This document shows positions 7,433 through 31,460 of a stretch of 32,887 nucleotides of DNA, piece by piece. The translations under genes and the position numbers were made by a program. Within the stretch, counting starts at the first letter, position 1; the number at the start of each line of letters is the position of its first letter. Below the pieces are notes generated by a model, which saw nothing but the letters and a program-made list of their open reading frames with translations, was not told the DNA's origin and ran no database searches. The DNA is from an uncultured Bacteroidota bacterium (lineage in GTDB: Bacteria; Bacteroidota; Bacteroidia; Bacteroidales; 4484-276): NCBI GenBank assembly GCA_903944895.1, contig CAJATL010000321.1, positions 1 to 32,887 of the forward strand. The letters run 5' to 3'.

Positions 7433-7733
7433 AATTTGTGATTTATGATTTGTGAAAGCTGCTTAGCGCTTAGCGCAGAGCGCTCTGCCATTTGTGATTT
7501 ATGATTTATGATTTATGAAATTCGCTTAGCGCTTAGCGCAGAGCGCTCTGCCATTTGTGATTTATGATTTATGATTTGTATTTTGTGAAAGCTGCTTAGC
7601 GCTTAGCGCTCTGCCCTATGTGATTTGTGATTTATGATTTGTGATTTGTAAAAGTCGCTTAGCGCTAAGCGCAGTGCGCTCTGCCCTTTGTGATTTGTGA
7701 TTTGTTATTTGAATTTTGTGATTTATGATTTTA
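7433..7733. repeat. Tandem repeat array of palindromic units and heptads
   Basis: Four copies of a palindromic core GCTTAGCGCTTAGCGCAGAG+CGCTCTGCC start at 7461, 7524, 7594 and 7657 (spacing 63, 70, 63). Copy 3 lacks 7 bp (CAGAGCG), and copy 4 has AAGCGCAGTG. Between them run heptads of the form GATTTRT (TTTGTGATTTATGATTTATG). The array fills the space between the MBOAT stop codon and the AlgX/AlgJ-like gene. No gene is present. The palindromic cores could form cruciforms or transcript hairpins that attenuate the downstream gene. Confidence 0.9.
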
Positions 7734-9194: not shown

Positions 9195-12100
9195 TTAGCT
9201 ATCCAGCTTTATCATTTTTCCGGTTGTGATCGTTTCACCAATCCTGAGCTGATAAAAATAAATCCCGGCTGGTATTAGTTTTTGTTGGTCATCTTTTGAA
9301 AACCATTGCACAGCATAATCACCTTTTTCGAAATGCTGGCTATTTAAAGGTTTTGAGATGGTTTTTCCAAAAATATCAAAAATCGTAATTTCTACATCCG
9401 AACCTTTGATGACCGAAAATCTGATTTCTGTCTGATTTGAAAATGGGTTTGGAAAATTGCCTGCTTTTACTTCTCCTTTGGGTGTTCCAGCAACTTCCGG
9501 AATACTGGTGATGTAATCGGCAAGGCCGAAAAATTCGAGGTAATTTTTCATGAGTAATTCCCTGTCATCATTTGTGGCGCTGCTTTCGAGGCTTCCAAAC
9601 TCAGTAAATGAGCCGATGGTTTTATAAACTTCATTTTCGTAGGCTACCGCCGAATTTCGAAAACTGGAAGTATCTAACCTGAAAATCGAAAATGCAGGTT
9701 CTACGGGCTGAAAATAATAGTTGATGATTTTGTTCTGAGCATTTGAATTAAATAGTTTATCCTGGCAAAAAGTACCCTCAACACCCCGAATTTGCAGGTA
9801 ATTTGTCCAGCTTGAAGCGGTAATATTTATATAAAATTTTGGATGTACCTGAGTTTGCGGATCCTGTTTCCAGGTGATGGCTCCTTCCATGTAAAGTTTT
9901 CCACCATTATCGAGGTATGCAGCCAGGTCGCTGCCTTCGTCTGCAGAAAGCGGGGTATTTTGATAAAAGGTTCCGAGGCAGAGGAAAACTGAGCGGTACA
10001 ATTCGAGTTTTGTTGGAACCGAATCGGCAGTTCGAAACTCGATACCCACGCCCTGAAGTGCTGCAATCATGGCTGCGGAGGAAGTGGTGTTTTGCGCCAT
10101 GTTGATTACAAGCACCGGAATTTGACCGATAACTAAGCTAAAGGTTTCTTCCTGCTCAATTTCGGGGTCTGCTGAAATCACGAAGCTAAAATCGGCAACA
10201 TGCGAAATCGGAGTGCCAGCATCTGCGCTTATCGTAAAGCCAAGCTCACGGCTTTGCCCGGGGGCCAGGTTCCCAAAAGGCAGCGATCCGGTGGAAGAAA
10301 TGGTTATAAAAGGATCCGTAGTTGTCAAAAGCCCGCTTACATCGCCAGCTGCAGCCGAGCCATCGTTGGTGATGGTTATGTAAAGATCAACAGTTTCTCC
10401 GGGATCGAGCTTGTGGTTGTTGTTATCAATAATCTTGCGATTGGAGAGGTACAAACCGGGCACCGCTGTTTCAAACATCAGTTTTCCGGTCCAGGTTTTT
10501 TCGGTGGTGTACAAAGTCAGGTTCAGGATAAACGAATATTTATCGGGGCACGAATCGGCAACACACATGGTTAGCGCGTTGCTCATGGTAATTGTTTGCC
10601 CGGGGTTGATTGTGCCGATTGTTGCGCTGCCATCGATAATTTCGAGATAAGGATAATTGCCTGAAATGCTTATCTGGAGGTTATGAAAAGTATAAATCGA
10701 AATGTTTTTGATTTTCAGATCAGTTTTTATCGTGTCACCGATCTGAATTAACGAATCTCCACCGGCGTCGATCTGGTACGAAAATACCAGTCCATCGGAT
10801 AACTGGAAGGTTTTGGTTGCCGAAATATTCTTATCATCAGTAACTTTTACAGGGATATTTTTGATTTCGTTGTTCATGACCGGATTTCCGCTAAGCAGGC
10901 CATCGGTGCTGAGATAAATCTGTTGTGGCGGCAAATCGGGAATCAGGGCATATCCTCCCTTCCGGGGAAGGGTTTTTGTGTTCGACCAACCCAACATTTT
11001 GTATTCCTCCTTGTTGCCTTTTGAAACGCCTGCATACCAGAGCAAATCTTCATCGGCTTCGATATCGTTGTAAAAATAACGTATCGTGCCATCGGGGTAT
11101 AAAATTACTGCAAATTCGGCGTGGCCAATCACATCTTCAAAAGCCATGATGGGAATGCTCCATCTGAAAGCTGCCTGGTTTTCGTCACCTTCGTACCACA
11201 TTCCGTCGCTATCGGTTAGCGGCGGGTAATATTTGAGCGGCTCATTTAAGAAAACAGCGATATTCATTATGCTCTTAAAAAGCAGGAAAGCATCGTTGTA
11301 ATAAGGCCAGGGATAAAGGTCGCCTTCGAACATGATAAATCCATTTTGATGGATAAAGAGCTTGTTAAAGTTTTCGCCGTAACACGGAAAACTGAACTCA
11401 ATTTCCTGCTCGGCATATTGAACATCGCCGGATGCAGGGACTAAAGGCACTTCCCCGATGACTGGAAAGTCGGCCGGATAACTCTGCTGGTAATATTTTC
11501 CGGCAAGCTCCCATTTACCGGGCAGCGTGCCGCCTTCGGCAGTCAACTGGACATCGTAAGGCTGACCTTCGATAACGGCAGGAAGTTCGTCGTTTACGAT
11601 TTCAATCTTATCAAAATCAAGCGTATGATTTACTGCAAGACGGGTTGTGGCACTTTCGGCAATCGGGACATGCTCGTCGGGACAATGGATTTCGGTTACA
11701 CCATTGGAATAATCCATAATCGAATAGCTCACAATTTCGCCGGTTCCCTCGTTTTTAGGATCATTTTCATCAATCACCACAAAAAACCTGGCGGGTTTTC
11801 CGGGAGTCACGTAACTTAACAGTGGTGTAAGGTCAAGCCCGGCTTCGATTGTTTTTTTTGCTTCTTCATCGCGGTGCCCCTGCATGTACTGGTGGCCGCC
11901 AGCGTAATTAAAAAACGGAAAGCTAAGCAGGTGTTCCGGCAGCAGTGAGGCCGTATCGTTTGAAACGCCTGCCGTGATATTGATTTTCTCCCGCGAATCG
12001 TGTTTCACAGTTAATTTCATAGTCAATTCAGGGGCATATTCAGGTTTTACATCCAAAAGATGAACCGAATGATTCCAGATGCCTCCTTCGTGAAGCTCGT

Positions 12101-13034
12101 CGGCAATCACTTTGTACATCATGTAGCAAAAGCCCAGATCGCCCCAGGTATCGCCGTAGCTGTTGGCAAATTTTACACCGCCGATTTCCCAGTCTTTCAT
12201 ATCAACAACACCATCAAAATTGATATCGAGATGATTGGTAAACTGGCCATCAGCATTAAAATCGTACCTGATGCTGTCGTTGTAACCAACGATTGTCATG
12301 GCATGGGTTGCAACGGTTCCCTGGAAATTGGTCATCACAATTTTGCCTGCTTCCGGACTTTCGGGAGGCAAAAAATTATAACCCCACGGGCTTGCTGCAT
12401 AAAATCCGGCAACACCGCCCGTCTCAGAGACATCCAGATGATCGTTGAGCCAGTTTTTCAGTGTCAGCAGGCCGTCGGGTGTGTTTGCTTTAATCTGACT
12501 AACACCGGTTGTCCGGTTCTTCATGGCCTCGTAATACTTGTCGTAGCCTGTAATCCAGATAACCCCTTCGTCAATATACATCCCGCCGTAATCAAAAACA
12601 TTCGGGGTTCCTAGAGTCCGCAGGATTTCGAAACTATGAAAATAACTTACGCCGTACCAGCCATAGCCGCTATTGCCAAAATTCCATGCAAAATGTGTGG
12701 GATACTGGTTGATGGAGGTGTCGGCTGGAAGGTTACGGGCACGGTTAATTTCGTAAGTAAAAATATAGCCAATTCCGGCTGACTGGCCGCAGGAGGCGCT
12801 TTCCTGTGAAAATATCGGCCTGAACCAGGGCAGCGTGGAGTTATCCAACGAAGCAGGTAAATTGCGGTGACGGTAATTTTCGGGAAGCTTTATTTCGGGA
12901 AGATTGCTCATCCATACCGAATCGGCCTGATTGATAATATTTTCGGTGGAAAAAAATCTTACATCGATTTCCTGTGAAAAAAGACTGAATTGAAGGAAGA
13001 AGAAAATGATTGCAAAATGTACTTTATTTTTCAT
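9195..13034 (-). CDS. Large secreted papain-like (C1) cysteine peptidase with T9SS sorting domain
   Basis: 1279 residues with a signal peptide (MKNKVHFAIIFFFLQFSLFS). The catalytic domain is C1-like: oxyanion Gln77 and Cys82 in SQESASCGQS, His244 in THAMTIVGY, and Asn291 in FANSYGDTWGD. Inserted between His and Asn is a calcium-binding, dockerin-like stretch: DFNADG (258-263) and DINFDGVVDMKD (270-281). The middle contains beta-sandwich-type extracellular modules with repeated NDG and G-x-L-x-P-G-x-S segments (for example DPGETVDLYITITNDGSA). The C-terminus from about 1185 (GNFPNPFSNQTEIRFS ... AGIYFYQL ... GKMIKLDS) is a T9SS type A sorting domain. It is likely a surface or extracellular protease; the target is unknown. 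A TTTG-N16-TACCTTTG promoter lies upstream. Confidence 0.88.
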   Translation of the reverse strand: MKNKVHFAIIFFFLQFSLFSQEIDVRFFSTENIINQADSVWMSNLPEIKLPENYRHRNLPASLDNSTLPWFRPIFSQESASCGQSAGIGYIFTYEINRARNLPADTSINQYPTHFAWNFGNSGYGWYGVSYFHSFEILRTLGTPNVFDYGGMYIDEGVIWITGYDKYYEAMKNRTTGVSQIKANTPDGLLTLKNWLNDHLDVSETGGVAGFYAASPWGYNFLPPESPEAGKIVMTNFQGTVATHAMTIVGYNDSIRYDFNADGQFTNHLDINFDGVVDMKDWEIGGVKFANSYGDTWGDLGFCYMMYKVIADELHEGGIWNHSVHLLDVKPEYAPELTMKLTVKHDSREKINITAGVSNDTASLLPEHLLSFPFFNYAGGHQYMQGHRDEEAKKTIEAGLDLTPLLSYVTPGKPARFFVVIDENDPKNEGTGEIVSYSIMDYSNGVTEIHCPDEHVPIAESATTRLAVNHTLDFDKIEIVNDELPAVIEGQPYDVQLTAEGGTLPGKWELAGKYYQQSYPADFPVIGEVPLVPASGDVQYAEQEIEFSFPCYGENFNKLFIHQNGFIMFEGDLYPWPYYNDAFLLFKSIMNIAVFLNEPLKYYPPLTDSDGMWYEGDENQAAFRWSIPIMAFEDVIGHAEFAVILYPDGTIRYFYNDIEADEDLLWYAGVSKGNKEEYKMLGWSNTKTLPRKGGYALIPDLPPQQIYLSTDGLLSGNPVMNNEIKNIPVKVTDDKNISATKTFQLSDGLVFSYQIDAGGDSLIQIGDTIKTDLKIKNISIYTFHNLQISISGNYPYLEIIDGSATIGTINPGQTITMSNALTMCVADSCPDKYSFILNLTLYTTEKTWTGKLMFETAVPGLYLSNRKIIDNNNHKLDPGETVDLYITITNDGSAAAGDVSGLLTTTDPFITISSTGSLPFGNLAPGQSRELGFTISADAGTPISHVADFSFVISADPEIEQEETFSLVIGQIPVLVINMAQNTTSSAAMIAALQGVGIEFRTADSVPTKLELYRSVFLCLGTFYQNTPLSADEGSDLAAYLDNGGKLYMEGAITWKQDPQTQVHPKFYINITASSWTNYLQIRGVEGTFCQDKLFNSNAQNKIINYYFQPVEPAFSIFRLDTSSFRNSAVAYENEVYKTIGSFTEFGSLESSATNDDRELLMKNYLEFFGLADYITSIPEVAGTPKGEVKAGNFPNPFSNQTEIRFSVIKGSDVEITIFDIFGKTISKPLNSQHFEKGDYAVQWFSKDDQQKLIPAGIYFYQLRIGETITTGKMIKLDS

Positions 13035-13267: not shown

Positions 13268-13693
13268 ATGGAAGAAATGGAATTTTCTTATCAGCAAAAA
13301 CCGACAGAAAAATTGAAGGCAGATTTTTCTCCGTGAAAGCAAAAAGGGAACAATTCTTTTGCTGACTACGAAGAATTTGAAATGTGGTATCGAAACCAAG
13401 ATAAAAACTGTCATTATTGTGGTTTGACAGAAGTAGAGTGTCAAAAAATTGTTAAAACTGGGTTATTAACATCTAAGAGATTCCCTAAAGATGGAATTTT
13501 AGGAAGGGGTCAAAGTCGCGGATTTTGGTTAGAGATTGACCGAGTAAATCCAAAAGAGAACTATTCTGTTCAAAACTGTGTACTCAGTTGTTATTTTTGT
13601 AATAATGACAAGAGTGATGTTTTTGACGGTGAAAATTATAAAGACTTTATGAAAAATAGAGTTGGTTTTTTACGAAAAATATTATCAAAATGA
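13268..13693 (+). pseudogene. HNH-type nuclease gene with in-frame stop
   Basis: The frame runs from ATG 13268 to TGA 13691-13693 (142 codons), but codon 23 is TGA (13334-13336). Both sides are in the same frame: PTEKLKADFSP before the stop and KQKGNNSFADYEEFEMWY after it. Together they look like the N-terminal region of Bacteroidota proteins I recall as ending in an HNH-like zinc core. That core is intact: CHYC at the front, then LEIDRVNPKENY, NCVLSCYFCNNDKSD (two C-x-x-C pairs plus NN-D-K). A shorter 103-residue version could start at ATG 13382. An Arg CGA to TGA change would explain the interruption, as would an assembly error. The gene ends with a 4-bp overlap (ATGA) into the next gene. 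Confidence 0.75.
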
Positions 13694-14556
13694 TTACAGA
13701 CCGCCAAACAAACTTTGTATTCCTTGCGGATACGCTCAGATTACAATTTCCAGATTTTGCAAGAAAACTGATTACAATTCTTAACGAAAACAATGTTCAG
13801 CATGATTTTTTACCTTTAACAAGAGATATTTGGGCAAGAGACTTTATGCCAATTCAAGTCTCAAAGGATAAATTCATTGAATACCGGTATGATCCTGACT
13901 ACCTGCAAGCAAAAAAATATCGAAAGCAAAAAACTTACCCGGACATTGTCTGTGATAAATTAGGGTTAAGAACAATCAAAACTGACCTGATTATTGATGG
14001 CGGAAACGTTATCAAATCATCCAATTGTGTTATCATGACTGATAAGGTTTTGGTTGAGAACAAGGATTTTTATAATCGGGATGGAGTAGTTGCTAAGTTA
14101 AAATTGATTTTTGAGGTTGATAAAATAGCCTTAATACCTTGGGATAAGGCGAACGAAGAGTATGGCCATGCAGATGGTATGGTTAGATTTATTGACGACA
14201 ACACAGTTTTGCTTCAAGGATATTTTGATGAATATGATGAAATTTTTAAGCAAAAACTCTATAGTTCTCTAGAACAAAACGGACTCCATTGGAAAAAATT
14301 AAATTATAATGTCATGAAACCAGATGAAGAAAATAACTGGGCGTACATGAATTTTCTGCAAACGAAAGATTTGATATTAATACCGGGTTTGGGCATTGAT
14401 GAAGATGAACAAGCATTGAAACAAATTAAGGAATACTTTCCGGAATATGCTAAAAATGATCGCGTTAAACAGATTGATGTGTCAGAAATTATTGGAGATG
14501 GTGGTGCTTTAAATTGCATTTCATGGACAATTTTCAAGGATGAATCCATAAAATGA
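13690..14556 (+). CDS. Agmatine deiminase/PAD-family protein
   Basis: 288 residues. The family (PF04371, agmatine deiminase and porphyromonas-type peptidylarginine deiminase) hydrolyses guanidino groups to ureido plus ammonia. Motifs seen: TRDIWARDFMPI (44-55), DGGN (103-106), YGHADGMVRFID (158-169) and GDGGALNCISW (269-279) with Cys276 as nucleophile and His160. At 288 residues it is clearly shorter than typical ~340-370 residue agmatine deiminases and has no signal peptide, so it is cytosolic and its substrate is uncertain. It starts within the stop of the HNH gene and ends within the start of the next (both ATGA), pointing to tight co-expression. Confidence 0.85.
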   Translation: MITDRQTNFVFLADTLRLQFPDFARKLITILNENNVQHDFLPLTRDIWARDFMPIQVSKDKFIEYRYDPDYLQAKKYRKQKTYPDIVCDKLGLRTIKTDLIIDGGNVIKSSNCVIMTDKVLVENKDFYNRDGVVAKLKLIFEVDKIALIPWDKANEEYGHADGMVRFIDDNTVLLQGYFDEYDEIFKQKLYSSLEQNGLHWKKLNYNVMKPDEENNWAYMNFLQTKDLILIPGLGIDEDEQALKQIKEYFPEYAKNDRVKQIDVSEIIGDGGALNCISWTIFKDESIK

Positions 14557-14864
14557 ACAAAGTAATAAAATTCAAATCCGACTTTAAGTCAACTCCGGAA
14601 TATAAAGAAGAGATCGAATTGATTCTTCGAAAAATTGCCGAATTTGAAGTTGAATTATCAACCATAATTGTTAATCTCGCTACAACCGGAAAATGGAAAG
14701 AATGGTCTGACAGCATTCAGGCAGGGGAATCGTTTGCATTTACCGAAGAAATGTTAAAAGACACCGGCGACGAAAACGTTGATGACCTGACTTTTTTGAT
14801 GGATGAACTTATCCGGGTAAAGACGAAAATTGAAACACGATTTGTAGGCAAAATTAGTTTTTAA
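14553..14864 (+). CDS. Hypothetical protein, 103 aa, third gene of the cassette
   Basis: I do not recognise this protein. It is acidic and largely helical in appearance: EYKEEIELILRKIAEFEVEL, then TTGKWKEW, then DVDDLTFLMDELIRV-like segments; it has no signal peptide, membrane segment or cysteine motif. It overlaps the deiminase stop by 4 bp (ATGA), so it belongs to the same transcript and is probably translationally coupled. A role as partner or modulator of the deiminase is inference from position only. Confidence 0.65.
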   Translation: MNKVIKFKSDFKSTPEYKEEIELILRKIAEFEVELSTIIVNLATTGKWKEWSDSIQAGESFAFTEEMLKDTGDENVDDLTFLMDELIRVKTKIETRFVGKISF

Positions 14865-15077
14865 AAACAAAAACTTAAAAGAAAGTAAAAGAACTTAAAA
14901 GAAATATTTCTCTAATTCATTGAAATACAAATTAATAACTGTGATAAGATTAAAAGAACTTCGGTTTTCGTTTACCCAATATTTTTAACGCTGATGAACG
15001 GAAAATAAGGTAACAAATTTTTTAGGTTCTTTTTTAATGAGACAAGTCTAAAAAGGCATCTAAAGTTAAAAATATTT

Positions 15078-15164
15078 GGCTAAAGCCCTGGATATCGCGG
15101 ACATCAATTGCCCCGACCTTAAGGTCGGGGCAATTGAAAACCTGACAGTATCCGGGCTTTAGCC
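15078..15164. repeat. Palindromic intergenic element, two nested stems
   Basis: Outer stem: GGCTAAAGCCC (15078-15088) with 15154-15164, continuing GGATA (15090-15094) with TATCC (15149-15153) past a one-base bulge. Inner stem: a perfect palindrome with 17-bp arms, 15104-15120 and 15121-15137, centred on CCCCGACCTTAAGGTCGGGG. Elements of this shape are, from memory, dispersed in Bacteroidota genomes. There is no T-tract, so it is not a simple terminator. Confidence 0.75.
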
Positions 15165-15246
15165 CAAAATCAACCATTTTTTAGACTTGATACAATAGCA
15201 GAAGGAAAAATTAAAACTTTCGGTTTTGGAACATGGATTCGGGTTT

Positions 15247-15286
15247 AAGAGAGTTTTTAAGAGAGTTCTAAGAGAGTTTAAGAGAG
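15247..15286. repeat. AAGAGAG short tandem repeat, 4 copies
   Basis: AAGAGAG begins at 15247, 15259, 15270 and 15280, spacing 12, 11 and 10 bases, each followed by a T-rich spacer. Confidence 0.75.
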
Positions 15287-15410
15287 ATTTGTATCTAAAT
15301 AATTGATATTTAGCAGAATAAATAGTGGTTTTTTAAATGCGTTTAAAGCAATTTCTCGAGAAAGATAATCGCGTAAAAATCATGTTTGAAAAAATGGCTC
15401 TATCGAATTT

Positions 15411-15450
15411 AGACGAACTTAGACGAACTCAGACGAACTCAGACGAACTT
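15411..15450. repeat. AGACGAACTY tandem repeat, 4 copies of 10 bp
   Basis: AGACGAACTT, AGACGAACTC, AGACGAACTC, AGACGAACTT follow each other without gaps, one helical turn per unit. A single further AGACGAACTT lies at about 15497-15506. Confidence 0.85.
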
Positions 15451-15662
15451 TTCTAATTAAAATACTGATAATTAATATAATAAGTCAAAACAGCTTTAGA
15501 CGAACTTAATTCTCCCGGGGCACAACGCATCCTTGAATGTAAAACAAAAATAAAGTGTCAGTTTTTATGTTTCATAACCACTGAATGAAAAATTGATGGT
15601 GCTGGGCTAATTAAAAATTTGTAGCCTGGTACATTTTAAAGTTTTGATGAAGGCAAAAAGTA

Positions 15663-18542
15663 ATGAACGAAAAAATAAATCATATTACCGATCTTTTAGA
15701 AGAGGATGAGATCGAAACCGGCATGCTCGAAGTTTATGGCGCCAGGGTTCATAATCTTAAAAATATCGACCTGAAAATCCCACGAAACAAACTCGTGGTA
15801 ATTACCGGATTGAGCGGCAGCGGCAAGTCCTCGCTTGCTTTCGATACAATTTATGCCGAAGGTCAGCGCCGCTACATGGAAACATTTTCGGCCTACGCCC
15901 GGCAGTTCATCGGCAACCTCGAGCGCCCGGATGTGGATAAAATTGACGGCCTCAGCCCTGTAATTTCGATCGAACAAAAAACCGTCAACAAAAACCCGCG
16001 CTCCACCGTCGGCACCATCACCGAAGTTTACGATTTTCTCAGACTACTCTATGCCCGCGTTGGTGACGCATATTCCTACAATACCGGCGAAAAAATGGTC
16101 AGGTACAACGAGCAGCAGATTATCACGCTCATCCTCGAAAATTATCCCGGCGAAAACATCACCGTCCTTGCCCCTGTTGTGAAAGCCCGCAAAGGACACT
16201 ACCGCGAATTGTTTGAACAGGTGCGCAAGCAGGGATTTTTAAAAGTGAGGATCGACAGCAAAATCGAAGACCTCACCTTTGGGATGAAACTCGACCGATA
16301 CAAAACCCACGACATCGAAATTGTGATCGACCGCATCAAAATTGATGACCAATCCAGGGAAAGGCTCACCAAATCGGTGCAAACAGCACTCAAATACGGC
16401 AAAGGCATTTTGATGGTCCTCGATCAGAAAGAAAATAAACTCAGGCATTACAGCAAGCTGCTCATGTGCCCAACAACAGGCCTTTCGTATGATGAACCCG
16501 AACCCAACACGTTTTCGTTCAACTCGCCGTATGGCGCCTGCCACCACTGCAACGGTCTGGGCGAAGTTTCCGAAATTGATTTTAAAAAAGTTATCCCCGA
16601 CGATAATGTCAGCATCAAAAATGGTGGTTTGGCGCCGTTGGGCGATTTTAAAAACAACTGGATTTTCAAGCAAATCGAGGCTATCGGCCATAAATACGGG
16701 TTCACCCTCGACACACCCATCAACGAAATTCCAGAAGACGGCCTCACAACCATCCTTTACGGTTCAGATGAAATCATTCATGTTAAAAACGACTACCTCG
16801 GAGTAACATCTTCGTACTCATTAAATTTTGAAGGCATCATCAGCTTCATCCAAAATCAGGATCAGGAAAGCGTTTCGAAAAACATCCAGAAATGGGTGGG
16901 CAGCTTTATGAATCATGTTACATGCCCCGAATGTGGCGGGACCAGACTTAAAAAGGAATCACTACATTTTAAAATTTTGGAGAAAAACATCTCCGAACTT
17001 GCCAATATGGATCTTATCCTTTTGAGGGAATGGATCGACACATTAACCGAAAAACTTGATGAACGCACTGCCAGAATTGCTAAAGAAATTTTACGGGAGA
17101 TCAGCACCAGGATTGGCTTTTTACTCGAAGTTGGTTTGGATTATATCACGCTAAACCGTCCCGCCAGAAGTCTTTCGGGAGGAGAATCGCAACGCATCAG
17201 GCTGGCCACTCAGATTGGATCGCAACTTACCGGCGTGCTTTACATCCTCGACGAGCCAAGTATCGGGCTTCATCAGCGCGACAACCTCCGCCTTATCGAA
17301 GCTTTGAAAGAACTGCGCGATGTCGGGAATTCGGTTATCGTGGTGGAACACGACAAAGACATGATTTTATCAGCCGACTATATTGTGGATATCGGCCCCG
17401 GAGCAGGCCTTCGCGGAGGCTACATTGTCGGCCAGGGAACGCCTGCCGACATGGTGAACTGCAGATCGATCACCTGCCAGTATCTTACCGGCGAAATGCA
17501 AATTGAGGTGCCACAAACCCGTCGGAGCGGAAATGGTGATTCCATTGTTTTGAAAGGTGCAACCGGCAACAACCTCAAAAATGTTGACCTCGTGATCCCA
17601 CTCGGAAAATTCGTGTGTATCACCGGCGTTTCGGGCAGCGGCAAATCCAGCCTGATCAACGAAACGCTCTACCCTATCCTGAGCAATTACTTTTATCGTT
17701 CCGAAAAAAAACCATTGCCTTACAAAGAATTTTCGGGGCTCGAATTTATCGATAAAGTTATCGAAATCGACCAGTCGCCTATTGGCCGTACCCCACGCTC
17801 AAATCCGGCAACTTACACCAAAGTTTTTGATGATATCCGCAAACTTTTTGGCGAAATCCCCGAATCAAAAATCAGGGGTTACCTGCCGGGAAGATTTTCG
17901 TTCAATGTCAAGGGCGGCCGCTGCGAAACCTGCCGGGGAGCCGGAGTTCGCATTATCGAGATGAACTTTTTGCCCGATGTACAGGTTCCATGCGAAGATT
18001 GCAACGGCAAACGCTATAACCGCGAAACCCTCGAGGTGCGCTTCAAGGGAAAATCCATCAACGATGTCCTCGACATGACGATAAACCAGGCTGTCGAATA
18101 TTTTGAAAGCATCCCTTCAATCATTCAAAAAATTAGGACATTAAAAGAAGTCGGGCTGGGTTATATCACGCTGGGGCAGCAATCGACAACACTTTCGGGA
18201 GGCGAAGCACAACGTGTAAAACTGGCCACCGAACTATCCAAACGCGACACCGGAAAAACGCTGTACATCCTTGATGAGCCAACAACCGGCCTTCATTTTG
18301 AAGATGTAAAAGTGCTGCTCGATGTTTTGCAGCGGTTGGTTGCCCGGGGAAATACCGTTTTGGTAATCGAACATAACATGGACGTCATCAAAGTTGCCGA
18401 TCACCTCATCGATCTTGGCCCTGAAGGCGGTTTCCGCGGTGGCCGGATTATCGCCGAAGGAACCCCCGAAGAAGTTTGTAAAAGCACCGAAAGCTACACG
18501 GCGGAGTTCCTTAAGAAGGAGTTAGGCATGAGGCGTGAGTAA
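15663..18542 (+). CDS. uvrA: Excinuclease ABC subunit A
   Basis: A 959-residue DNA-damage recognition ATPase of nucleotide excision repair, working with UvrB and UvrC in the cytoplasm. Both ABC modules are complete: Walker [10 protein letters not shown] (49-57) and GVSGSGKSS, signatures LSGGESQR and LSGGEAQR, Walker [11 protein letters not shown] and [10 protein letters not shown]. The C-terminal zinc module is intact (Cys754/757 and Cys777/780). The N-terminal zinc-finger position reads MCPTTG where many bacteria have CPxCG, so the first module probably lacks zinc; I recall this from other Bacteroidota UvrA proteins. The start at 15663 adds about 20 residues before [16 protein letters not shown] 15723 is an alternative. 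Confidence 0.97.
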
Positions 18543-28445: not shown

Positions 28446-31400
28446 TTAATCCTTCAAACAACGAACACTGTTCCCTTGCGCTGTGCTCCACCAGTTACGA
28501 TCAACCAAACCATCGTTATAACTCACGCCCCGATACCATGCCTGATATTGAACACCTGAAATAAGCGTGGATGTCCACCAGTGGCCACGGGAACCTTTGT
28601 GGTAGTATGGTCCTTCGCTATAATAGCCACCCGCCGGACCAGAAAACCCTGTTAAATTGTTTGCCGATGGATTATTACCAATTGCACACAGATTCGTTGA
28701 GGAATTCCAGAGGGTTGTTGTTGCCATCGATTTGGATATCCATGAGGTATTTGCATTGCATAAAAAATCAGCCTGGTTTTTTACGTAATTGGTTAAATTC
28801 TGCCACTCGGTATCGGTGGGAATGTGCCAACCAGGTGGACAAATTCCCCTGGCTCCCTGAATGTTTGTGTATTGCATCATTTCATCCCACCGGTAAAGGC
28901 CACCATACAGTGTACAATTCGATGGATCATTATCATAACAGTATTTATCGATAATTCCATTGTTGGAAGGGCCTTGCATTGTGCCGACATTAAGATTTTC
29001 TTTAAACCAGCATTGATCTCCTATCAAAATCGTATTGTAAGTTTGCCCCTCATAATCAACGGTCTCAAATCCCGGACAGGGAAGACCAAACTCCAAAAGT
29101 TCTGCATTTAGCTGCACGTTTGAATTTCCCATGTAAATCGATAATTCAATCAGACCAAAACCTTCTTTATAAAACCGGATTATTCTTGGCCCCTGCGGCA
29201 CCCCCGAAATCTGATAATATCCTGATAAATCGGATGTAACCATTAAATTTCCCGGAGTTCCGTTGGGATTTAAAACAACAACATTCACATCAGGAACTGC
29301 ATTACCGAACTGGTTGGTAATTATACCCGAAACCATGTGGGTGTAATTTCCTGTTGTCATTTCAATATCAAAAACAACTCCGCCTGTTATCACTTCGATG
29401 GTTTGGCTAAAAGGATCATAATTCGTTTTCGTAGCAATGATTGTCCGCATTCCAACCGGAACTCCGATTAGCTCATATAATCCATTGGATTGAGAGGTAC
29501 CGGCAATATCAGAAATCTGAACATTTACCCCTGAAATTGGAATTGTGGTTCCGGCGTAATAAATATGGCCGTTAACATTGGCAACATCCAGCGCAGTAAA
29601 TTCAAACTGATTTCCATAAGAAGTTCCAACGCCATTGACTGCATAGGCTCTTACAAAATAGGACGTGTTACTGTTTAATCCAGTCAGAAGGCTTATGAAA
29701 ACACCAGTTCCAAATCCATCTTCTGTATGATCATCATCAGTTGTCGGATTTTGTGCGATGCTCCAGCAAACACCTCTGAAGGTAACAGAGGTTCCACCAT
29801 CATTTGTAACTTCACCACCGCAGGTAGCCGTGTTTTGCGTAATATCAGTTACCGGATTTGTTACTACTGTTGGGATTGTTAAAGTAGTAAATGATAACTG
29901 GTTCCCGTAAGATGTTCCAACTTCATTTGTAGCAAAGGCTCTTAAATAATAGGTTACATTCTCAGATAATCCGGTTAAATAACTGACGAAATCACCCGTT
30001 CCACTGCCATCAACTGTGTGAAAATCACTAATGTCAGGTTCCTGCGTTGTACTCCAGCAAATACCTTTTATTGTAACTGATGCCCCACCATCGCTAATTA
30101 CATTACCACCACAGGTAGCTGTGTTCTGGGTAATATCTGTTATTAGATTTGTAATCACAGTTGGGATTGTTAAAGTAGTAAATGATTGCTGGTTCCCGTA
30201 TGATGTCCCAACTTCATTTGTAGCATAAGCTCTTAAATAATAGGTTGTATTCTCAGTTAATCCCGTTAAATAACTGACGAAATCACCCGTTCCACTGCCA
30301 TCAACTGTGTGAAAATCACTAATGTCAGGTTCCTGCGTTGTACTCCAGCAAACACCTTTTATAGTAACGGTTGCACCTCCATCATGAGTTACATTACCAC
30401 CACAGGTAGCTGTGTTTTGGGTAATTTCCGTTATCTGATTTGTAGTAACCGTCGGAATCGTTAAAGTACCAAACGACAACTGGTTTCCATAAGCAGTCCC
30501 AGCTTGGTTTGTAGCATAGGCTCTTAGATAATAGGTTGTATTCTCAATCAATCCGGTTAAATTACTGGTGAAGTTACCCATTCCGCTGCCATCAACGGTT
30601 TGATAATCATTAATAGTTGGATCAAGTGTGGTACTCCAGCAAACACCCCTGGCATTAACAGTTCCGTTACCATTGTTGGTGACATTGCCTCCGCTTGTGG
30701 CAGTATTTTGCCCAATTTCGGAAAGAGCCAAAGTTGTAACCGTTGGTAAGGTCACAATAATGTCGGCTTGCAGCTCAAACGTGTAGCTTGTATTTCCATC
30801 GGGATTATCATAAATGGTTTTTTCGGAATAGCCCGCTGCAATTGCTTTCAGCGCTAATTGATCCCCTGGAACAAAGCTAAAGAAATCGTTTAGTCCGGTA
30901 GTTTTGAAATCCGCCTGAAGATCTGATCCGATCTGCCAGATTTCATTTCTCCTGATAATTCCGGAATTCTGGCAAACGAGTTTCATTGTTTTTGAAAGTT
31001 CGCCATTACTTACCGTCAGAAAATAAAAACCACTGTTACCGGTAAAAACTTCAAAAGAATGAATCCCACCCGACAACTCAGTATTAAATTCTGATACAAC
31101 CGAGCCAAACACATTACTGATAATAATTTGTATGTTTTCGTGATTCCATAGCACCAAATTAAATTTAGTGTTGAATATATACGGGTTAGGAAAATTTGGC
31201 TTTAATATTATTCTGTCATTATTAACCCCAAATTCATCAATTGCCGAGGGCCATGATAAAAATAAATATGGTGCATCACCATAAATGGTGGTATCGCACG
31301 ACTTTGAAATATTTTGAATCAGCACACTTTCCAAAAGTACCGGAGTACCAGAATTCGCATCTTTAGCTTCAAAATTCAGAACCATATCGCCCTTTTGTGC

Positions 31401-31460
31401 GAAAATATTAAGTGCAAAAAGAAACGATAAAAACAAGAAAGGGAGCATCATTTTTTTCAT
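28446..31460 (-). CDS. Modular secreted FISUMP protein with four FN3-like repeats
   Basis: 1004 residues. Signal peptide: MKKMMLPFLFLSFLFALNIF. Residues 86-165 (LKPNFPNPYIFNTKF ... GFYFLTV) resemble a T9SS sorting-type domain, but near the N-terminus. Four extracellular beta-sandwich repeats of exactly 97 residues follow, starting IPTV..-like at 239, 336, 433 and 530 and containing GVCWST and TTYYLRAYATN. Next come two carboxypeptidase-regulatory-like domains (about 628-702 and 708-790) and a C-terminal FISUMP/Fib_succ_major domain (CPPGWHIPTDTEWQNL, WWTST, VRCLKD). It is probably a surface adhesin or binding protein; the ligand is unknown. Confidence 0.9.
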   Translation of the reverse strand: MKKMMLPFLFLSFLFALNIFAQKGDMVLNFEAKDANSGTPVLLESVLIQNISKSCDTTIYGDAPYLFLSWPSAIDEFGVNNDRIILKPNFPNPYIFNTKFNLVLWNHENIQIIISNVFGSVVSEFNTELSGGIHSFEVFTGNSGFYFLTVSNGELSKTMKLVCQNSGIIRRNEIWQIGSDLQADFKTTGLNDFFSFVPGDQLALKAIAAGYSEKTIYDNPDGNTSYTFELQADIIVTLPTVTTLALSEIGQNTATSGGNVTNNGNGTVNARGVCWSTTLDPTINDYQTVDGSGMGNFTSNLTGLIENTTYYLRAYATNQAGTAYGNQLSFGTLTIPTVTTNQITEITQNTATCGGNVTHDGGATVTIKGVCWSTTQEPDISDFHTVDGSGTGDFVSYLTGLTENTTYYLRAYATNEVGTSYGNQQSFTTLTIPTVITNLITDITQNTATCGGNVISDGGASVTIKGICWSTTQEPDISDFHTVDGSGTGDFVSYLTGLSENVTYYLRAFATNEVGTSYGNQLSFTTLTIPTVVTNPVTDITQNTATCGGEVTNDGGTSVTFRGVCWSIAQNPTTDDDHTEDGFGTGVFISLLTGLNSNTSYFVRAYAVNGVGTSYGNQFEFTALDVANVNGHIYYAGTTIPISGVNVQISDIAGTSQSNGLYELIGVPVGMRTIIATKTNYDPFSQTIEVITGGVVFDIEMTTGNYTHMVSGIITNQFGNAVPDVNVVVLNPNGTPGNLMVTSDLSGYYQISGVPQGPRIIRFYKEGFGLIELSIYMGNSNVQLNAELLEFGLPCPGFETVDYEGQTYNTILIGDQCWFKENLNVGTMQGPSNNGIIDKYCYDNDPSNCTLYGGLYRWDEMMQYTNIQGARGICPPGWHIPTDTEWQNLTNYVKNQADFLCNANTSWISKSMATTTLWNSSTNLCAIGNNPSANNLTGFSGPAGGYYSEGPYYHKGSRGHWWTSTLISGVQYQAWYRGVSYNDGLVDRNWWSTAQGNSVRCLKD
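29974..30360. repeat. Near-identical 291-bp repeat units inside the FISUMP gene
   Basis: Repeats 2 and 3 of the four FN3-like units are almost identical in DNA. The same text (AACTGACGAAATCACCCGTT ... CTCCAGCAAA) recurs at 29981 and 30272, 291 bp apart, i.e. 97 codons. Repeats 1 and 4 are more diverged. Confidence 0.85.

What the first reader, a model, noticed from the sequence alone, without database searches (positions are those of the whole stretch)
13268..14864. Compact HNH-deiminase-unknown cassette with two ATGA overlaps
Three genes (HNH-like nuclease, PAD/agmatine deiminase-family enzyme, unknown 103-aa protein) are joined by stop-start overlaps, are visibly more AT-rich than their neighbours, and lie next to an 800-bp repeat-filled gap. 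Nuclease plus small-molecule or arginine-modifying enzyme plus small acidic protein is an unusual set; a mobile or defence-like unit is one reading, an ordinary metabolic insertion another. The association is seen directly; the function is inference.
Basis: partly seen in the sequence, partly recalled or inferred. Interest (0 to 1): 0.6.

Follow-up and report, generated by a model that had tools for sequence, protein, structure and literature searches.

The report
Deiminase paired with swappable DNA enzymes
A small gene cassette in a Bacteroidota genome pairs an arginine-type deiminase with a nuclease-like protein; related deiminases across the phylum sit beside, or are fused to, different DNA-cutting or base-removing enzymes, in several cases near anti-phage genes, which suggests an undescribed DNA-targeting defence module.

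Summary
The cassette is real: HNH-like, PAD/agmatine-deiminase-type and unknown 103-aa genes, joined by two ATGA overlaps, at 33% GC against about 46% on either side. One correction: the HNH frame starting at 13268 holds an in-frame TGA (13334-13336); the intact ORF starts at 13382.

The main result lies outside the window. In 27 of 41 related deiminase loci the deiminase is beside, or fused to, a DNA-processing enzyme: a divergent methylpurine-DNA-glycosylase relative (17), a hypoxanthine/uracil-type glycosylase (3), an HNH protein of the window's family (6) or a GIY-YIG protein (1). None of 22 AguA-type control loci shows this within 1.5 kb; 16 of the 22 carry aguB, found at none of 43 deiminase loci. 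Three kinds of fusion occur, one example each, and partners changed repeatedly on the tree. Two copies lie inside type I restriction operons.

So HNH-deiminase pairing recurs; the 103-aa protein is not a constant member. Best reading: a DNA-targeting defence or base-excision module in which a guanidine/amidine hydrolase works with an interchangeable DNA-attacking enzyme. Function and substrate are inferred. The window's copy may be crippled, and no defence gene was seen beside it.

The parts
13268..13381 (+). 5' stretch of the HNH frame, interrupted by an in-frame TGA at 13334-13336; corresponds to the N-terminal part of intact relatives
   Evidence: translation with stop; intact relatives
13382..13693 (+). 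HNH-like protein, 103-aa open frame with paired CxxC motifs; usual HNH His replaced by Arg
   Evidence: PHROG endonuclease VII 6.6e-8; motif alignment; no Pfam or NCBIfam hit
13690..14556 (+). Short PAD/agmatine-deiminase-fold (pentein) enzyme, 288 aa, catalytic Cys276, His160, Asp162 and Asp51 present
   Evidence: PF04371, 92.5 bits; motifs; model pLDDT 84; Z 24-26 to agmatine deiminases and PPAD
14553..14864 (+). 103-aa mildly acidic protein of unknown family; a rare small-protein family
   Evidence: (no family)
13690..13693 (+). ATGA stop-start overlap between HNH and deiminase genes
   Evidence: 8 of 22 partner-deiminase gene pairs, this one included, have a 4-base overlap
14553..14556 (+). 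ATGA stop-start overlap between deiminase and 103-aa gene
14865..15662 (.). AT-rich intergenic gap holding two short tandem arrays and a dispersed palindromic element (about 15035-15195); probably not part of the cassette's function

Best explanation
The cassette is one version of a sparse, horizontally moving two-part module of Bacteroidota: a short agmatine-deiminase-fold enzyme (constant part) and a DNA-processing enzyme (exchangeable part: MPG-like glycosylase, hypoxanthine/uracil-type glycosylase, HNH or GIY-YIG protein, or a type I RM complex). SHOWN by sequence: the adjacency, the fusions, the partner exchange, the preserved deiminase catalytic residues, and defence genes near a number of copies. 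INFERRED: the module acts on foreign DNA. The deiminase hydrolyses a guanidine or amidine group carried by, or bound to, that DNA (for example a hypermodified phage base), and the partner then excises the base or cuts. This would be analogous to BapA and Brig3, where one operon encodes a hydrolase that strips a sugar from a phage base and a glycosylase that excises it. In the window the partner is an HNH-like protein whose frame is interrupted, so this copy may be decaying. My split: the recurrent module about 0.95; a DNA-directed defence or conflict role about 0.6; the 'hydrolase uncovers the base for the partner' chemistry about 0.3.
For: Partner beside or fused in 27 of 41 deiminase loci (X 17, UDG-type 3, HNH 6, GIY-YIG 1) against 0 of 22 AguA-type loci, Fisher p 8e-8 (X beside L082 seen as L100). 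All 22 partner genes found by profile as separate ORFs lie on the deiminase's strand, 8 with a 4-base overlap. Fusions, one example each: X+deiminase, 514 aa, L091; HNH+deiminase, 398 aa, L179; UDG-type+deiminase, 492 aa, L178 (43.3 bits with the bias filter off, no hit with it on). X is MPG-related: hhalign probability 90.2, E 1.5e-6 over 146 columns against 15 MPGs from the phylum, while X against deiminase, HNH or UDG-type alignments gives 0.1-0.2; 1 of 6 X proteins sent hits PF02245 (3.7e-5); the X profile finds true MPGs L098 and L099. The UDG-type partner of L076 passes the DNA-deoxyinosine glycosylase model (94.5 bits, cut-off 80). On the tree the four partner kinds alone need 9 changes among 26 rows, 18 if 'none recognised' counts as a state; the HNH label needs 5, all forced by starred branches; the sister pair L076 (UDG-type) and L174 (HNH) is 100/100. 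Deiminase 3 bases after hsdR and before hsdM in L084, and in a type I RM operon with a GIY-YIG protein and a TmtA-like gene in L172. PADLOC hits in 12 of 14 loci sampled by eye, 0 of 10 AguA neighbours. No aguB at 43 deiminase loci, present at 16 of 22 AguA-type loci. Catalytic residues invariant. GC lower than the flanks in 28 of 35 loci. BapA-Brig3 precedent: abstract of PMC13160076.
Against: No function was measured. The neighbours sent to PADLOC were picked by eye, and some lie one or more genes away or on the other strand (L035, L078, L173, L175), so 12 of 14 is not an unbiased rate. In 14 of 41 loci no partner was recognised, including the own-genome second copy L032. The window's HNH frame is interrupted and the usual HNH His is absent in 15 of 16 aligned rows, so nuclease activity is uncertain. 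No defence gene was seen beside the window's copy. The residues that hold agmatine in agmatine iminohydrolase (passages of PMC6447857) have counterparts here, so plain agmatine hydrolysis is not excluded. Five of 6 X proteins have no Pfam MPG hit; the X structure model was poor (mean pLDDT 43.7) and gave no significant match. X also occurs without a deiminase within 1.5 kb (L095, L096, L097). Of the 13 proteins of the HNH cluster, 10 come from loci without a deiminase hit (L004-L006, identical, L047-L051, L055, L056), so HNH is not bound to the deiminase.
Confidence: 0.5

Rival explanations
1. Base deamination and excision: the deiminase itself deaminates a base in DNA (guanine holds a guanidine-like N-C(NH2)-N unit), and the partner excises or cuts at the deaminated base. 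This would explain why two unrelated glycosylase folds, both known for hypoxanthine-type substrates, are recruited.
For: The UDG-type partner of L076 passes the DNA-deoxyinosine glycosylase model and X is MPG-related; MPG/AAG also excises hypoxanthine (recalled). Fusions.
Against: No pentein is known to me to act on a nucleobase (recalled). The active-site residues match those that hold a small guanidine with a cationic tail. HNH and GIY-YIG partners do not need a deaminated base.
Confidence: 0.12
2. Ordinary agmatine deiminase (polyamine metabolism) that happens to be carried on accessory DNA.
For: PF04371 hit well over cut-off; best structural matches are agmatine deiminases, Z 24.5-26.1; guanidine- and amine-binding acids conserved.
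Against: TIGR03380 score 48.6 against cut-off 381.8, a cut-off no relative passes; no aguB at 43 loci against 16 of 22 for AguA-type loci; adjacency and fusion to DNA enzymes in 27 of 41 loci.
Confidence: 0.15
3. Effector model: the DNA enzyme is the sensor or targeting part and the deiminase is a toxic effector that citrullinates proteins or drains arginine or agmatine when foreign DNA is met.
For: One constant enzyme with several unrelated DNA-acting partners and fusions resembles exchange of sensors; defence context; the HNH partners mostly lack the usual catalytic His.
Against: The glycosylase partners keep catalytic features of their own (X: invariant Glu and Tyr of the ExEFY motif; the UDG-type of L076 passes a catalytic family model), which a mere sensor would not need.
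Confidence: 0.2
4. DNA-repair accessory: the module mends or removes a chemically altered base (such as a guanidine-type adduct) in the cell's own DNA; no conflict role.
For: Glycosylase partners; weakly matching relatives of the window's 103-aa protein lie beside UmuC-like and SRAP genes in G427.
Against: Patchy distribution, presence on plasmids and phage or viral contigs, defence neighbours and lower GC than flanks fit a mobile conflict module better.
Confidence: 0.13

Closest known systems
Brig3-BapA (5hmC DNA glycosylase plus deglucosylating hydrolase; abstract of PMC13160076)
   Same: One operon joins a hydrolase acting on a decorated base with a DNA glycosylase that excises the base; anti-phage role shown there.
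   Different: Here the hydrolase is a pentein (deiminase) and the partner is MPG-like, UDG-type, HNH or GIY-YIG. No sequence comparison with Brig3 or BapA was made and no function is shown.
Agmatine deiminase AguA / agmatine iminohydrolase (TIGR03380; PDB 2jer, 6nib, 6b10)
   Same: Fold and catalytic Cys/His/Asp residues.
   Different: Scores far below the AguA model, shorter, DGGN in place of EGG, no aguB neighbour, DNA-enzyme partners instead.
Porphyromonas-type peptidylarginine deiminase (PF04371; PPAD 4yt9, 5ak7)
   Same: Pfam family and fold; Z 24.0-24.4, hardly below the agmatine deiminases.
   Different: By sequence PPAD matches more weakly (27 bits against 62-87 for agmatine deiminases) and is longer; no sign that a peptide is the substrate.
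Methylpurine/alkyladenine DNA glycosylase (PF02245)
   Same: The usual partner X in relatives aligns colinearly with MPG, including the ExEFY / ETEAY motif.
   Different: X scores under Pfam's cut-off (best 23.6 of 27), and no X-profile hit was found in the window or its genome.
Restriction glycosylases (R.PabI, R.CcoLI) and HNH or GIY-YIG restriction enzymes (search listing; passage of PMC10273834)
   Same: Defence by base excision or strand cutting.
   Different: No deiminase partner seen: 'deiminase' has 0 occurrences in the main text of PMC10273834.

Membership tests
PF04371 PAD_porph (pentein) | Score over Pfam cut-off (25 bits) | tested here: met
   92.5 bits
PF04371 PAD_porph (pentein) | Catalytic Cys, His and guanidine-binding acids | tested here: met
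   D51, H160, D162, C276 invariant in the 11- and 8-row alignments; roles from passages of PMC6447857, residue mapping by motif spacing
PF04371 PAD_porph (pentein) | Pentein fold | tested here: met
   Model pLDDT 84, pTM 0.85; Z 24.5-26.1 over 269-278 residues to agmatine deiminases
Agmatine deiminase AguA (TIGR03380) | Score over the equivalog cut-off (381.8 bits) | tested here: not met
   48.6 bits. Caution: 0 of 148 relatives, full-length AguA-like proteins included, pass this cut-off, so it is strict for this phylum
Agmatine deiminase AguA (TIGR03380) | aguB in the neighbourhood | tested here: not met
   0 of 43 deiminase loci, window included; 16 of 22 AguA-type loci, 8 proteins of which seeded the profile
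Agmatine deiminase AguA (TIGR03380) | Hydrolyses agmatine | not testable with these tools
   needs an enzyme assay
HNH endonuclease | Zinc-binding CxxC pairs and C-terminal Asn of the HNH core | tested here: met
   CxYC and CxxCNN motifs in all 16 aligned rows, three of them identical; motif meaning recalled
HNH endonuclease | Catalytic His of the HNH motif | tested here: not met
   window has EIDR; His only in L179 of 16 rows; that this column is the catalytic His is recalled and inferred
HNH endonuclease | Curated Pfam or NCBIfam HNH model hit | tested here: not met
   0 families; PHROG endonuclease VII 6.6e-8
Septu (PtuA-PtuB) | PtuB HNH with PtuA ATPase neighbour | tested here: not met
   weak PtuB matches only, best 16.1 bits; neighbours are a deiminase, a T9SS protein and uvrA
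MPG/AAG glycosylase (partner X of relatives, not in the window) | Over PF02245 cut-off (27 bits) | tested here: not met
   best 23.6 bits, L039; 5 of the 6 X proteins sent have no hit to it
MPG/AAG glycosylase (partner X of relatives, not in the window) | Profile-level homology with catalytic Glu and stacking Tyr | tested here: met
   hhalign probability 90.2, E 1.5e-6; Glu and Tyr invariant in 12 X proteins; roles recalled
MPG/AAG glycosylase (partner X of relatives, not in the window) | AAG fold | tested here: inconclusive
   model pLDDT 43.7; AAG rows at Z 2.3-3.1 among unrelated rows
Anti-phage defence system | Protects against phage or plasmid | not testable with these tools
   only context tested

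The most novel reading that the evidence does not exclude
A previously undescribed immune module in which a pentein deiminase removes a guanidine or amidine decoration from phage DNA (or deaminates its bases) so that an exchangeable DNA glycosylase, HNH/GIY-YIG enzyme or type I RM complex can destroy it. This would be the first pentein acting on nucleic acid that I know of, and a new chemistry of base-directed restriction.
Probability: 0.3. Interest if true: 0.92.

Novelty: new variant of a known kind. Interest (0 to 1): 0.72.

Why it matters
Penteins are known to me for acting on arginine, agmatine and protein arginine, not on DNA (recalled). A family of them that is operonic with, and in single cases fused to, three unrelated kinds of DNA enzyme, and that sits in two restriction operons, gives a directly testable case of a guanidine hydrolase in DNA conflict. 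It would extend the BapA-Brig3 idea of uncovering and then excising a base to a new chemistry, and would point to guanidine- or amidine-bearing phage bases as its target. The name 'agmatine deiminase family protein' on such genes in Bacteroidota would then mislead.

Tried and rejected
Reading the cassette as a fixed three-gene unit: rejected. The 103-aa family occurs in 2 of 148 and 4 of 395 genomes, own genome included, and a profile of its 8 members finds only the window's own copy among all ORFs of the 43 deiminase loci.

Ordinary agmatine metabolism: disfavoured by the missing aguB and the DNA-enzyme partners, but not excluded.

Known defence system by model: P0001, P0002 and P0003 against PADLOC gave only weak PtuB matches for the HNH protein.

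Structure of X: the 3-row model was poor. Foldseek had no match with E<=0.001. VIA-align had human AAG rows at Z 2.3-3.1 among unrelated rows, which I count as no evidence.

X as 'always with a deiminase': rejected. Of 8 genomes hit by the X profile at phylum level, 3 are the deiminase-linked loci already known, 3 (G384, G539, G115) have X with no deiminase in the 1.5 kb fetched on each side, and 2 are true MPGs. In G034 (L045) an X-like gene stands divergently beside an AguA-length deiminase; it was not counted, though its X is one of the 12 rows of A4.

Rows dropped before the 27 of 41 count: L087 and L089 (no deiminase ORF called), the AguA-type or more distant loci L044, L045, L046 and L090, and the contig-end fragment L003. 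L168 and L169 have the contig lengths of the two Flammeovirga plasmids and were not counted again. The close pairs L085/L086 and L052/L053 are in the count as two loci each. L082's X was not called by my ORF script and rests on L100. L178's UDG-type part was missed by the default filter and found with the filter off, by a profile of only two sequences. L172's GIY-YIG partner rests on Pfam (DUF4357 over its cut-off; GIY-YIG at 21 against 22.6, just under) and on PADLOC PDC-S14.

Limits of the controls: the AguA-type loci come from one set of relatives and have 1.5-kb flanks (shorter at contig ends), 2 of 22 had no ORF that the deiminase profile finds, and none passes the TIGR03380 cut-off. All separate partner genes of the deiminase set lie within 401 bases. 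The aguB profile was built from 8 neighbours of the control loci themselves.

Tree: 38 deiminase rows and 3 AguA-type rows; L042, L043 and L086 left out; L179 has a long branch and an unsure place. Partner labels are hardly more clustered than shuffled ones (HNH 5 changes, shuffled mean 5.8, as low in 101 of 500; all groups 19 against 21.7, as low in 13 of 200). Counting only the four partner kinds, 9 changes on 26 rows.

PADLOC sampling: 19 neighbour proteins from 14 deiminase loci, chosen by eye, 17 hits; none at L041 and L080. The tenth protein (L071) is not from a deiminase locus and had no hit. Control: 10 of 20 listed AguA neighbours, 0 hits.

Insertion test at uvrA: 9 loci from 9 genomes of the window's family were examined. 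uvrA is followed by the window's next gene in 6 of 9 (L101, L104, L105, L106, L107, L108), and no ORF upstream of uvrA matches a window protein in any of the 9, within 1.5 kb. The same-genus genome G001 gave no uvrA match at the cut-off used.

Literature: 8 searches. No listed paper ties, by title or abstract start, agmatine deiminase or a pentein to DNA glycosylases or phage defence; most listings were cut (for example 15 of 205 and 15 of 4,826). PMC13092281, PMC13060105, PMC12458937 and PMC10273834 were searched for terms only; PMC13092281 has no 'deiminase' or 'agmatine', and one figure legend naming UDG beside base-modification domains. PMC6447857 was read by passages, PMC13160076 by abstract and outline. 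This covers the held library only.
Full report
WHAT IS IN THE WINDOW. The window is one contig of a 7.17-Mb assembly; that it is Bacteroidota is inferred from the type IX secretion tail of the flanking protein and from named relatives. Between a 1279-aa T9SS-sorted protein (9195-13034, minus strand) and uvrA (15663-18542, plus strand) lie three plus-strand ORFs: 13382-13693, 13690-14556 and 14553-14864, joined by two ATGA overlaps. GC over them is 0.33-0.34 against 0.46-0.47 on either side. Intact relatives (L004, L023, L174) have the corresponding N-terminal part, so the window's HNH gene is damaged, shortened or misassembled. The gap 14865-15662 holds two short tandem arrays and a nested palindrome that is a copy of a dispersed element: 108 candidates in this genome, 40 scored, 81 match rows, many copies listed on both strands.

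THE PROTEINS. The 288-aa protein is a PAD_porph-family enzyme (PF04371, 92.5 bits, cut-off 25). It reaches only 48.6 bits on the agmatine deiminase model, whose cut-off is 381.8; no relative passes that cut-off either. Its AlphaFold model is good (pLDDT 84, pTM 0.85) and is closest to agmatine deiminases (Z 24.5-26.1) and PPAD (24.0-24.4), well ahead of DDAH, amidinotransferases and human PADs (Z 17-19). D51, H160, D162 and C276 are invariant among relatives. They fall on the residues that bind and attack the guanidine in agmatine iminohydrolase (passages of PMC6447857; mapping by motif spacing is my inference). The acids that hold agmatine's amine also have counterparts (D46, E156), so an agmatine-like substrate is plausible. 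The HNH-like protein has no Pfam or NCBIfam hit, matches PHROG endonuclease VII at 6.6e-8, and has Arg where the HNH motif usually has its first His; in 16 aligned rows only L179 has His there (the motif is recalled). The last 103-aa protein belongs to no known family.

DO THEY TRAVEL TOGETHER? HNH and deiminase do. tblastn put both on two Flammeovirga plasmids, where the order is hypothetical gene, deiminase, HNH. In another order, G617 (L170) and G666 (L174) have HNH directly upstream of the deiminase, and in G563 (L179) the two are one 398-aa protein. HNH is not bound to the deiminase, however: 10 of 13 members of its cluster come from loci without one. The third protein does not travel with them. 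Its family was found in 2 of 148 relatives and 4 of 395 phylum genomes, own genome counted, and at none of the other 42 deiminase loci. In G076 it is directly followed by an HNH protein with a helix-hairpin-helix domain. In G427 weakly matching relatives (E 4e-8 to 9e-5) follow a UmuC-like gene and a SRAP gene. That fits a small accessory of DNA-repair or conflict genes, no more.

THE LARGER PATTERN. Clustering the neighbours showed that the deiminase's commonest neighbour is not HNH but a protein X. X is a divergent methylpurine-DNA-glycosylase relative. Of 6 X proteins sent to Pfam one hits PF02245, at 3.7e-5 and under the cut-off. hhalign against 15 MPGs from the phylum gives probability 90.2 and E 1.5e-6 over 146 colinear columns, while the same X profile against deiminase, HNH and UDG-type alignments gives 0.1-0.2. 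The X profile also picks up true MPGs. Glu and Tyr of the ExEFY motif are invariant in 12 X proteins and align with the ETEAY motif of MPG, which holds the catalytic Glu and a stacking Tyr in AAG (recalled). In L076 and L077 the neighbour is instead a UDG-superfamily protein; the one in L076 passes the DNA-deoxyinosine glycosylase model (94.5 bits, cut-off 80), the one in L077 matches it below cut-off (37.7). Over 41 loci with a called deiminase ORF, 27 have such a partner beside or fused: 17 X, 3 UDG-type, 6 HNH (two of them the Flammeovirga plasmids) and 1 GIY-YIG. Fourteen have none that I recognised. Of the 22 partner genes found by profile as separate ORFs all are on the deiminase's strand, 8 with a 4-base overlap. 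Three different fusions exist, one example each: X in L091 (514 aa), UDG-type in L178 (492 aa) and HNH in L179 (398 aa).

CONTROLS. Twenty-two AguA-type loci from 148 relatives show none of these partners within 1.5 kb (Fisher p 8e-8). Sixteen of the 22 carry aguB, which none of 43 deiminase loci does. On a tree of 38 deiminases the four partner kinds alone need 9 changes among 26 rows, and 18 if 'none recognised' is a state too. The HNH label needs 5, all forced by well-supported branches, and the sister pair L076/L174 (100/100) has a UDG-type partner in one and HNH in the other. The labels are hardly more clustered than shuffled ones. The window's copy groups with L033 (X), L172 (GIY-YIG) and the Flammeovirga copies (HNH). 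Partners have thus been exchanged again and again beside one enzyme. I read this as functional equivalence of the partners, which is an inference.

DEFENCE CONTEXT. In L084 the deiminase starts 3 bases after hsdR and is followed by hsdM. In L172 it lies in a type I RM operon with a GIY-YIG protein (PADLOC candidate PDC-S14) and a TmtA-like 1400-aa gene. PADLOC models matched neighbours at L033, L035, L036 (AriAB-like), L037, L040, L075, L078, L079, L173 and L175 as well: in all 12 of 14 loci sampled and 17 of 19 proteins. The sample was picked by eye, and at L035, L078, L173 and L175 the matched gene is further off or on the other strand, so it is suggestive only; 10 AguA neighbours gave 0 hits. 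Deiminase cassettes are lower in GC than their flanks in 28 of 35 loci of at least 10 kb (median -3 points, Wilcoxon p 1.3e-4), and relatives lie on plasmids and on phage or viral contigs. Against this, no defence gene was seen among the six proteins scanned around the window's copy.

HOW IT MAY WORK. A constant guanidine-type hydrolase with an exchangeable DNA-attacking enzyme recalls BapA-Brig3, where BapA strips glucose from a phage base and Brig3 excises it (abstract of PMC13160076). I therefore favour a module in which the deiminase hydrolyses a guanidine or amidine group on or at foreign DNA and the partner excises the base or cuts. A deoxyarchaeosine-type amidine base is one conceivable target; deoxyarchaeosine is known from phage 9g (search listing PMC5567051; that it is an amidine is recalled). 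Shown: adjacency, fusion, partner exchange, preserved catalytic residues, context. Inferred: substrate, order of action, defence role. Rivals are base deamination by the deiminase, a toxic-effector model, repair, and plain agmatine metabolism.

NOVELTY. Eight literature searches listed no paper that describes such a pairing, within the held library and with listings cut, and no PADLOC model matched the deiminase. I rate it a new variant of a known kind (hydrolase plus base-attacking enzyme), with a fair chance of being more than that.

Noticed in passing
window 15035-15195: Nested palindrome that is one copy of a dispersed element of about 150-160 bases; 108 candidates in the own genome, 40 scored, 81 match rows with many copies on both strands.
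   Followed up: partly
window 15244-15290 and 15404-15450: Two short tandem arrays (11- and 10-base units) in the gap before uvrA.
   Followed up: no
window 7434-7711: Tandem array of a 63-70-base unit with internal 7-base repeats, between the 591-aa AlgX-like gene and the MBOAT gene.
   Followed up: no
window 29761-30647: Three copies of a 291-base repeat inside the 1004-aa ORF 28446-31460.
   Followed up: no
L002 / L032 (G000:C70:2208-3065): A second deiminase in the same genome, 53% identical, without a recognised partner.
   Followed up: partly
L091 5335-6879: Human gut phage scaffold MT836602 encodes an MPG-like domain fused to the deiminase.
   Followed up: yes
L085 5268-6876, also L086 and L088: Viral contigs with a phosphatidylserine-decarboxylase gene (Pfam PF02666, tested in L085) overlapping a divergent deiminase of this family.
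   Followed up: no
L090 3704-4756 (Bacteroides phage DAC19): Six Bacteroides phages carry a distant deiminase, 26.6% identical, annotated hypothetical.
   Followed up: no
L069 4238-4522 and 8143-8430: Weakly matching relatives of the window's 103-aa protein directly after a UmuC-like gene and after a SRAP gene.
   Followed up: partly
L045 6183-6941 and 7181-8245: X-like gene divergently beside an AguA-length deiminase in G034 (deiminase).
   Followed up: no
L095, L096, L097: X-like MPG relatives with no deiminase within 1.5 kb; in L095 the ORF just downstream on the other strand looks like a transposase by eye.
   Followed up: no
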